Origin: Actinomycetota bacterium
GTDB taxonomy: Bacteria > Actinomycetota > Actinomycetes > Nanopelagicales > Nanopelagicaceae
Assembly (NCBI GenBank): GCA_009702835.1
Contig: WLHF01000002.1
Coordinates: 1-37,455 of the forward strand
Length of the DNA stretch: 37,455 nucleotides
Direction of reading: 5' to 3'
Below, one piece after another: positions 19,888 through 23,289 of the stretch. Positions within the stretch are counted from its first letter, which is position 1, and every line of letters starts with the position of its first letter. The notes under the pieces are model-generated. The model saw only the letters and a list, made by a program, of their open reading frames with translations. It was not told the DNA's origin and searched no databases. The translations under genes and the position numbers were made by a program.

Positions 19888-20343
19888 CTATTTACTCTTA
19901 CCGTGATCGCATACAAAAAGCAGATGGAACTTACCGATCTGTATCGCATCACCTGTTTTCAAAACAATTTCACTTATTGATTCATTGTTGACATAGGTTC
20001 CGTTGAGAGATCCAGAGTCACGCAGAACAAAAGCTGTACCTTTTTTTTCAACAACTGCATGAGCTCTAGAGACAGTTACATCATCTAGAAAAACCCCACT
20101 CGATGCAGATCGCCCAACCGTTGCTCCCTCATGAGTGATAAGAAATCTTGCGCCCTTACTCTCTCCTCGGTTGATAAGAAACATCGCCTTCTCGCCGTTA
20201 GATAGCTGAATCTCACTAACAACTGAACGATCTGCCTGCGACAGAGATGCTAGATACTCATCGAGAACTCCAGCAGGGGAAGTGCTGACCTCTCTCGATG
20301 AGAGATGAAGAACGCTAGTGGGTTCACTCTTGGAGTTCTCCAC
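19888..20343 (-). CDS. garA: GarA/OdhI-like FHA-domain protein
   Basis: A 151-residue forkhead-associated protein. GarA (OdhI) binds and inhibits 2-oxoglutarate dehydrogenase and controls glutamate enzymes; phosphorylation of its N-terminal tail makes it fold back on its own FHA domain. The FHA domain spans about 55-146 with G77-R78, the S-R-A-H at 92-95 and G-S-L-N-G-T-Y. The N-terminal motif, ETTSVF in mycobacteria, reads E7-P8-T9-S10-V-L here, so the first of the two Thr residues is Pro. The GTG at 20343 has AGGAGG four bases upstream. Position between gcvH and ftsR is conserved. Confidence 0.9.
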   Translation of the reverse strand: MENSKSEPTSVLHLSSREVSTSPAGVLDEYLASLSQADRSVVSEIQLSNGEKAMFLINRGESKGARFLITHEGATVGRSASSGVFLDDVTVSRAHAVVEKKGTAFVLRDSGSLNGTYVNNESISEIVLKTGDAIQIGKFHLLFVCDHGKSK

Positions 20344-20398: not shown

Positions 20399-20773
20399 TC
20401 AAGCCGTCAAAGCAGCGTATTCGCTAGCCGTTAAAAGCTCGGTTGGTGGAGCGGTTATTTCAATTTTCATAAGCCACCCAGCGCCATAGGGATCGGAGTT
20501 GATTAACTCTGGAGCATTCGATAACGGTTCATTTATCGCACTCACTACACCTGTGACCGGTGCAAAGATCTCAGAGACTGATTTTGTTGATTCAACCTCA
20601 CCGCAGACTGTTCCGGCGCTAACACTCTCTCCGATCTTTGGTAGCTGCACGTAAACGATGTCACCAAGGGCCGACTGTGCATAATCAGTTATACCCATTG
20701 TGTAGATACTGGCATCTGCCAATACCCACTCATGCTCTTTTGTGTACTGCAGATTCTCAGGAGCTGATGACAT
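20399..20773 (-). CDS. gcvH: GcvH, glycine cleavage system H-protein
   Basis: The lipoyl carrier of the glycine cleavage system, shuttling the aminomethyl intermediate from GcvP to GcvT and GcvL. A 124-residue protein of normal length. It begins NLQYTKEHEWV, has the ALGDIVYVQLP strand, and carries the lipoylated Lys at K64 in VESTKSVSEI. The C-terminal segment holds NSDPYGAGWLMKIE, diagnostic for GcvH. The ATG has AGAGG a few bases upstream and overlaps pgsA by 17 bases. A 55-base gap with a regulatory-looking inverted repeat separates it from garA. Confidence 0.95.
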   Translation of the reverse strand: MSSAPENLQYTKEHEWVLADASIYTMGITDYAQSALGDIVYVQLPKIGESVSAGTVCGEVESTKSVSEIFAPVTGVVSAINEPLSNAPELINSDPYGAGWLMKIEITAPPTELLTASEYAALTA

Positions 20774-21333: not shown

Positions 21334-23289
21334 TTAGTCGCGCTCTTTTACACGGATCGCGACTTGAACAGGTGTACCAGGAAAGCCAAACTCTTCGCGC
21401 AGACGCCGCTCAATGAAACGACGGTAGGAGGCTTCGATCCAGCCACTTGAAAAGACCACAAACTTGGGAGGGGCGATCCCTGCCTGGGTGGCGTAATAGA
21501 TCTTGGGCTGCTTGCCGCCACGAACTGGTGGTGGGGTCGCACCGATCAGCGCTCCGAGGAATGAGTTGAGTTTGGCAGTCGGGACACGTCGCTCCCAGCT
21601 ATCCAAGGCTGTGCGAATCGCTGGAGCTAAACGATCTCGGTGCCAACCTGTCTTTGCCGCAACATTGACGCGCTGTGCCCATTCAACTTGATCTAAATGT
21701 CTATCTATTTCGCGATCCAGTTGATCACGTCGATCCTCATCAACTAAATCCCATTTGTTCATCACAATGACCATCGCTTTTCCTGCCTCTTCTACCATGG
21801 TTATGACACGAAGATCTTGTTCAGTGATTGGTTCAGATGCATCTAAAACTACAACCGCGACTTCGCAACGCTCAAGTGCGCTTTGAGTACGCAAGGATGC
21901 GTAGTAATCAGTACCCGATGCCTGATTAGCGCGTTTCTTTAGCCCTGCAGTGTCGATAAATCGCCAGGTCGACCCCGCAAACTCTATTAACTCATCAACT
22001 GGATCGCGAGTTGTACCCGCTACATCATCAACGATTGAACGGTTCTCTCCAGCTAGAGCATTGAGGAGAGAAGACTTACCTACATTTGGACGACCGACTA
22101 AAGCAATCTTGCGATATCCATCTTGAGTTTGGGCTCCCCCAACTTCAGGAAGCTCTGTAACTATGTGATCGAGTAGATCACCACTTCCACGCCCGTGTAA
22201 AGCGGAAACAAAATATGGCTCGCCAAGTCCAAGACTCCATAATCCATGAGCTTCAGACTCCTCGCGCTCACCATCAACCTTGTTACCAATTAAAATTAAT
22301 GGCTTCTTTGCTTTGCGCAGTCGTTGAACGAGAATGTCATCCTCATCTAAGGCACCTACTTGGGCATCGACAACAAAGGCTAAAACATCGGCCTCTTCCA
22401 TTGCTATCTCGGCTCCGGCGCTGACTTGAATTGAAATCCCATCGGGTTTTGCTTCCCACCCGCCTGTATCCATAACTATAAAGCGACGACCGCCCCATTC
22501 GCATTCATACTGCACGCGATCGCGAGTTACACCTGGAGTATCTTCAACAATCGCCTCGCGTCGACCGATAAAGCGGTTAATTAACGTTGATTTACCAACA
22601 TTTGGGCGACCCAGTATTGCAACAATGGGCAGACCGAGTAATGAACGCTCGCGTAGTAACTCCCAAATTCGCTCTATTGTTTCATCTAAATCTAAATATG
22701 TTGAGTCCACTTCAACTGCATCGAGAGCCATGGCAAGTGGAGAAACTTCGCGTGAGGAATCAATAGCATCGCGCGTATCCAAAGAGGTACGAACATCAAT
22801 AGTTTTATCTTCGGTTTCATTCTCACGACGCACTGCGCGAGCATCTAAATCCGCTGTCAGATAAATCTTTAAAGCAGCATCTGGTGCTACAACTGTGGAA
22901 ATATCCCGACCCTCGACTACGATACCTTTTTCAGCGCGATCGATAATCGAACGTTGAATACTCAGGAGCTCATGTCGAATCGCAGGCATAGCACTGATGC
23001 GACTGACATTCTCAGTTACTGATGCGCCACGTATTGCATGCGTAATCTGCGTATCTCCTGCAAAAATATTAGGATCATGAGGATCAGAGACAAAACGGAT
23101 GGGCATAGATTTCATCGCAGAGATGATTTCTTGTGCAGTTTCTGCTTTAGTTTCAAGTGCAATCCACGTTACTGCACGATACAAGGCTCCAGTATCTAAA
23201 TAATTCCAACCTGCGCGAATAGCAATTGCTCGCGATGTGCTTGATTTACCTGCACCACTGGGGCCATCTATTGCTACGACTATGCCCAT
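21334..23289 (-). CDS. cmk-der: Fused cytidylate kinase / GTPase Der
   Basis: A 651-residue two-enzyme fusion. Residues 1 to about 215 are cytidylate kinase (CMP/dCMP to CDP/dCDP): P-loop GPSGAGKSS with K15, TGALYRA, and GRDIST. Residues about 220-651 are Der (EngA), a tandem-GTPase ribosome-assembly factor for the 50S subunit: first G1 GRPNVGKST with K233, then [14 protein letters not shown] and NKVD; second G1 GRPNVGKSS with K405, then DTAGLKKR and NKWD. A KH-like C-terminus contains [12 protein letters not shown]. No stop or frameshift lies between the two parts. cmk and der are separate neighbours in M. tuberculosis; fused forms are known in some Actinobacteria. An ATG with TAGGCT six bases before suggests its own promoter. 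Confidence 0.95.

What the first reader, a model, noticed from the sequence alone, without database searches (positions are those of the whole stretch)
20311..20322. GarA with E-P-T-S in place of the E-T-T-S phospho-motif
The GarA/OdhI tail carries two adjacent Thr residues in E-T-T-S-V-F: the first is the PknG site, the second the PknB-type site. Here the motif reads E7-P8-T9-S10-V-L, keeping only the second Thr. The FHA phosphopeptide pocket (R78, S92, R93, N114) is intact. The switch may depend on one kinase class only, perhaps matching loss of pknG.
Basis: partly seen in the sequence, partly recalled or inferred. Interest (0 to 1): 0.55.

Follow-up and report, generated by a model that had tools for sequence, protein, structure and literature searches.

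The report
Single-site GarA switch, ordinary clade trait
A freshwater actinobacterium's protein that brakes the citric-acid cycle has one phosphorylation site where tuberculosis bacteria have two adjacent ones; its whole family shares this and lacks the extra kinase, so it is an ordinary lineage trait and not a local oddity.

Summary
The GarA/OdhI orthologue at 19888-20343 (-) reads E7-P8-T9-S10-V11-L12, with the FHA pocket intact.

No PknG is detectable in this genome or in any of 251 genomes of its order, and the genus encodes only PASTA (PknB-type) kinases, usually two. But nothing is special to this genome. In 102 of 108 family GarAs the residue before the invariant Thr is L (95), V (5) or P (2). 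Pro is one base from the family's Leu, and it recurs elsewhere in the phylum.

Across the class the first position is free (T, S, L, I, V, Q, N, A, P, R and others). Canonical ETTS is a minority. T-T survives without PknG, and PknG survives without T-T, so the motif does not track PknG reliably. A raw association exists, but the tree leaves only 3 usable independent pairs.

Most likely this is a working one-site GarA. T9 would be phosphorylated by a PASTA kinase and reset by the PP2C phosphatase encoded beside one of them, controlling the two-in-one OdhA found in this genome. Phosphorylation itself is inferred. Interest is low to moderate: it corrects the idea that ETTS is the family signature.

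The parts
19888..20343 (-). garA/odhI orthologue, 151 aa, FHA-domain regulator
   Evidence: best solved match GarA 8p5r_G, E=1.2e-24
20308..20325 (-). phospho-motif E7-P8-T9-S10-V11-L12; T9 codon 20317-20319 is the only Thr aligned to the ETTS pair (second, PknB-type site)
   Evidence: direct reading; family alignment
19933..20121 (-). FHA domain (residues 75-137), with R78, S92, R93, N114
   Evidence: Pfam PF00498 E=8e-18; residue mapping
20399..20773 (-). gcvH, glycine cleavage H protein, upstream neighbour
   Evidence: PF01597
19139..19858 (-). MerR-family regulator (FtsR-like), downstream neighbour
   Evidence: PF13411
18644..19135 (-). bifunctional nuclease domain protein (DUF151 type), syntenic neighbour
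   Evidence: PF02577
20757..21329 (-). CDP-alcohol phosphatidyltransferase, syntenic neighbour
   Evidence: PF01066

Best explanation
This is an ordinary Planktophila-type GarA/OdhI with a one-Thr switch. [quoted passage not shown] OdhA is shown to be present). A membrane PASTA Ser/Thr kinase phosphorylates T9. The pThr tail then folds into its own FHA pocket and releases OdhA, and the PP2C phosphatase encoded next to one of the kinases resets it (all inferred from the characterised T15/T22 branch of OdhI/GarA). The PknG branch (GlnH-GlnX-PknG acting on the first Thr) has no detectable PknG throughout this order, and the first position has drifted, to L in nearly all members and to P here.
For: The motif and FHA pocket are intact, as is the synteny. 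The Thr before S/T/G/A is invariant in 108 readable family tails, with the first position L 95, V 5, P 2, T 6, and position +3 is L or I in 100 of 108. PknG markers are absent from 251 of 251 genomes, including 108 at least 90% complete. The genus has PASTA kinases only, typically two per genome, with a PP2C phosphatase directly upstream of one. OdhA, a fused E2o-E1o protein of 1249 aa with all domains, is present and matches KGD/OdhA at 1413 bits. Literature: PknA/PknB phosphorylate T15/T22 and pT15 closes the FHA switch (PMC2784874). [quoted passage not shown] PknA-dependent sites favour Pro or acidic at -1, Leu/Val at +3 and basic at +4 (PMC7164672), which E-P-T-S-V-L-H fits.
Against: No phosphorylation, binding or inhibition is measured. 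The protein scores 109 bits on NCBIfam OdhI NF041660, below its cut-off of 200. One of the OdhA-contact arginines described for OdhI (R134) is His140 here. In M. tuberculosis the T22 form was too scarce to quantify and the first Thr carried most phosphate (PMC5448819), so the second site alone need not suffice. The own genome is only 82% complete.
Confidence: 0.75

Rival explanations
1. Co-loss: the first Thr was lost because PknG was lost, so the motif is a reliable marker of a PknG-less network.
For: In sampled GarAs outside the window's family, T or S at the first position is in 22 of 25 PknG-positive genomes versus 33 of 71 PknG-negative ones (Fisher p=3e-4).
Against: On the GarA tree only 3 independent pairs rest on supported branches, so the association cannot be tested free of kinship. 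T-T persists without PknG (g5 and g13 of this family; f3, f11, f15, f22) and PknG persists with R/K/S/A-T (f41, f15, f22).
Confidence: 0.35
2. The tail is no longer a phospho-switch: GarA is a constitutive OdhA inhibitor, or is controlled otherwise, for example by its level.
For: Streamlined genomes; EATS-type GarA in M. tuberculosis complements only partly (PMC5448819); no phosphodata exist for this lineage.
Against: The Thr and the hydrophobic +3 residue stay invariant while the rest of the tail diverges; kinases and phosphatase are retained.
Confidence: 0.12
3. The Pro is a sequencing or assembly error at one base (CTC to CCC), and the true residue is the genus Leu.
For: Single metagenome-assembled contig; Leu is one transition away; the nearest relative (74% identical) has Leu.
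Against: An independent genome, G022, carries E-P-T-G, and E-P-T-T or D-P-T-T is common in other Actinomycetota.
Confidence: 0.07

Closest known systems
OdhI of Corynebacterium glutamicum / GarA of Mycobacterium (FHA inhibitor of OdhA/KGD)
   Same: FHA domain with the same pocket residues, syntenic position, OdhA target present, Thr with hydrophobic +3 in the N-tail, PknB-type kinases present
   Different: single Thr (E-P-T-S instead of E-T-T-S), about 10 residues more between the Thr and the FHA, no PknG, R134 of OdhI replaced by His, below the NCBIfam OdhI cut-off
L-T type GarA of other Planktophila/Nanopelagicaceae-like genomes
   Same: same family, same invariant single Thr, same lack of PknG
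   Different: Leu (rarely Val) rather than Pro before the Thr
Zinc-ribbon FHA protein of Thermoleophilia/Solirubrobacterales (for example L255, L264)
   Same: E/D-P-T-T tail and FHA domain, followed by the same MerR regulator and preceded by the same CDP-alcohol phosphotransferase
   Different: N-terminal zinc ribbon; different class; targets not examined

Membership tests
GarA/OdhI | FHA domain with phosphothreonine pocket residues (GarA R81, S95, R96, N117) | tested here: met
   PF00498; ungapped match to 2kfu
GarA/OdhI | syntenic place between gcvH and the MerR/ftsR gene | tested here: met
GarA/OdhI | two adjacent Thr in the ETTS motif (as described in PMC12321487 and PMC8546545) | tested here: not met
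   E-P-T-S; but the survey shows exact ETTS in only 17 of 204 orthologues, so it does not define the family
GarA/OdhI | NCBIfam OdhI equivalog cut-off (NF041660, 200 bits) | tested here: not met
   109.4 bits, still the best family hit
GarA/OdhI | target enzyme, fused E2o-E1o OdhA/KGD, in the same genome | tested here: met
GarA/OdhI | phosphorylation-controlled inhibition of OdhA | not testable with these tools
   needs biochemistry
PknG-GarA signalling branch | PknG (PknG_TPR / PknG_rubred) in the genome | tested here: not met
   the PF16918 search rings in the C. glutamicum control and in 148 of 395 class genomes
PASTA-kinase (PknB-type) branch | PASTA Ser/Thr kinase over the curated cut-off plus PP2C phosphatase | tested here: met
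   NF033483 at 634 and 529 bits (cut-off 450); PP2C 214 bits, just under its NCBIfam cut-off of 230, but over the Pfam cut-off

The most novel reading that the evidence does not exclude
In most Actinomycetes the GarA/OdhI switch is a one-Thr device driven only by cell-wall-sensing PASTA kinases. The two-Thr, PknG-driven nutrient input known from Mycobacterium and Corynebacterium would then be a lineage add-on. In PknG-less freshwater lineages, 2-oxoglutarate flux would be tied to cell-wall state rather than amino-acid supply.
Probability: 0.35. Interest if true: 0.45.

Novelty: new member of a known kind. Interest (0 to 1): 0.22.

Why it matters
It shows that the ETTS motif, described as conserved in GarA/OdhI, is a minority state, and that the invariant element is a single Thr, usually with a hydrophobic residue at +3. 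It also shows that PknG, the best-known GarA kinase, is missing from a whole abundant freshwater order that keeps GarA and OdhA. That makes a simple question testable: which signal controls the TCA-cycle brake when PknG is absent?

Tried and rejected
1. Co-evolution of the first Thr with PknG: the raw association is significant, but it could not be tested free of phylogeny (3 independent pairs), with clear exceptions both ways.
2. Weak PknG_TPR hits in 5 genomes of the order (17-19 bits, below the 27-bit cut-off, open frames of 287-307 aa, E>=2e-4): taken as generic TPR proteins, not PknG. One weak PknG_rubred hit (20.7 bits, frame of 172 aa) was treated the same way.
3. Alternative alignment of E-L-T-T-T-L with a one-residue insertion, so that T-T is kept: rejected because the second of these Thr varies (T/S/G/A) while the first is invariant with L/I at +3.
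4. NAD-dependent GDH (PF05088) as a second GarA target: 0 of 31 in the genus, but only one control genome rings, so this is weak.
5. Structure prediction was not run: the FHA fold is already clear from sequence, and a phosphorylated state cannot be modelled with the tool.
6. No paper on Nanopelagicales kinases was found.

Full report
Observation. The ORF at 19888-20343 (-) encodes 151 aa with E7-P8-T9-S10-V11-L12 near the N-terminus. Its best solved relatives are GarA and OdhI (8p5r_G E=1.2e-24; 2kfu Rv1827 pThr22; 2kb3 OdhI). The ungapped 2kfu match gives window residue + 3 = GarA number, so R78, S92, R93 and N114 are GarA R81, S95, R96 and N117. By the same offset and the OdhI contacts listed in PMC10415282, OdhI R53, R72, S86, R87, L107 and K132 correspond to R59, R78, S92, R93, L113 and K138 here, all kept; OdhI R134 is H140. 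The OdhI-to-GarA offset of 9 is from the literature pairs T14/T21-type numbering and S86/S95 (PMC10415282, PMC2784874), not from an alignment run here. The neighbours gcvH, MerR-type regulator, bifunctional nuclease and CDP-alcohol phosphotransferase are in place. The NCBIfam OdhI model is the best family hit but below its cut-off (109 against 200 bits).

Genome context. The window lies in a 1.18 Mb, 98-contig, 82% complete genome. The nearest named relative (74% identity) is a Candidatus Planktophila MAG (L232). The genome has two kinase genes, both PASTA kinases over the curated cut-off; a PP2C phosphatase gene precedes one of them and overlaps it by 4 bases. Genus members usually have the same two. 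PknG is not found: PknG_TPR 0 of 251 and PknG_rubred 0 of 251 genomes of the order over cut-off, of which 108 are at least 90% complete. The PknG_TPR search does find C. glutamicum and 148 of 395 genomes of the class. The GarA target OdhA is present as one 1249-aa protein with E2o and E1o domains. The large NAD-GDH was not found in the genus (weak control).

Relatives. GarA was found in 227 of 251 genomes of the order and in all 108 good ones. I read 108 tails of the window's family from fetched loci. First position: L 95, V 5, P 2, T 6. The two P cases are the window (EPTSVLH) and G022 (EPTGALH). The six T cases are genera g5 (DTTSIKR) and g13 (DTTAIRR). The Thr that follows is always present, and +3 is L or I in 100 of 108. 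The motif finder required a Thr, so I also checked the tails by eye. The second Thr of E-L-T-T is not invariant (T, S, G, A), which fixes the alignment: the invariant Thr equals GarA T22/OdhI T15, and T21/T14 is replaced.

Class-wide survey. From 96 further genomes, the first position is T, S, I, V, M, Q, N, E, H, A, P, G, R or K. Exact ETTS occurs in 17 of all 204. PknG-positive genomes: T 14, S 8, A 1, R 1, K 1. PknG-negative genomes outside the window's family: T/S 33 of 71. Fisher p=3e-4 for T/S, but genomes are not independent; a GarA tree leaves 3 usable independent pairs, too few to test. Family f41 keeps PknG with E-R-T-S and E-K-T-S. Families f3, f11, f15 and f22 have T-T members without PknG. 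Some distant tails (f28, f31, f34) are hard to align and their first position is uncertain. Outside the class, the syntenic FHA gene of Solirubrobacterales normally reads E/D-P-T-T (orthology supported by the neighbouring MerR gene at 35% identity and a CDP-alcohol phosphotransferase gene). E-P-T is therefore a recurrent state.

Mechanism. Known: PknG phosphorylates T14/T21, PknA/PknB phosphorylate T15/T22, and pT15 makes the tail bind its own FHA domain and release OdhA (PMC2784874; PMC9769921). [quoted passage not shown] PknA-dependent sites favour Pro or acid at -1, Leu/Val at +3 and basic at +4 (PMC7164672); E-P-T-S-V-L-H fits. Inference: here T9 is the only switch residue and a PASTA kinase is its writer. 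This is not shown experimentally.

Verdict. The sequence reading is right, pknG is indeed missing, and only the PknB-type site remains. But the trait belongs to the whole family, Pro is a minor variant of its Leu, and the link to PknG loss is loose. Canonical two-Thr ETTS is the special case, not this. Low to moderate interest.

Noticed in passing
window 21334-23289 (-): Single 651-aa ORF fusing cytidylate kinase and the double-GTPase Der/EngA (PF02224 + two MMR_HSR1 + KH_dom-like).
   Followed up: partly
L115, L118 (family f41): GarA tails ERTSVFR and EKTSVFR in genomes that do carry PknG: the PknG site is replaced by a basic residue although the kinase is kept.
   Followed up: partly
L249-L280 (Thermoleophilia/Solirubrobacterales): The syntenic FHA gene has an N-terminal zinc ribbon and mostly an E/D-P-T-T tail, so Pro before the Thr is the usual state there.
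   Followed up: partly
L036, L179, L180, L181, L209 (g5) and L042 (g13): Two genera of the window's PknG-less family keep D-T-T-S/A with a short tail and K/R at +3, unlike all other genera.
   Followed up: partly
31 genomes of the genus: No large NAD-dependent glutamate dehydrogenase (PF05088), a second known GarA target in mycobacteria.
   Followed up: partly
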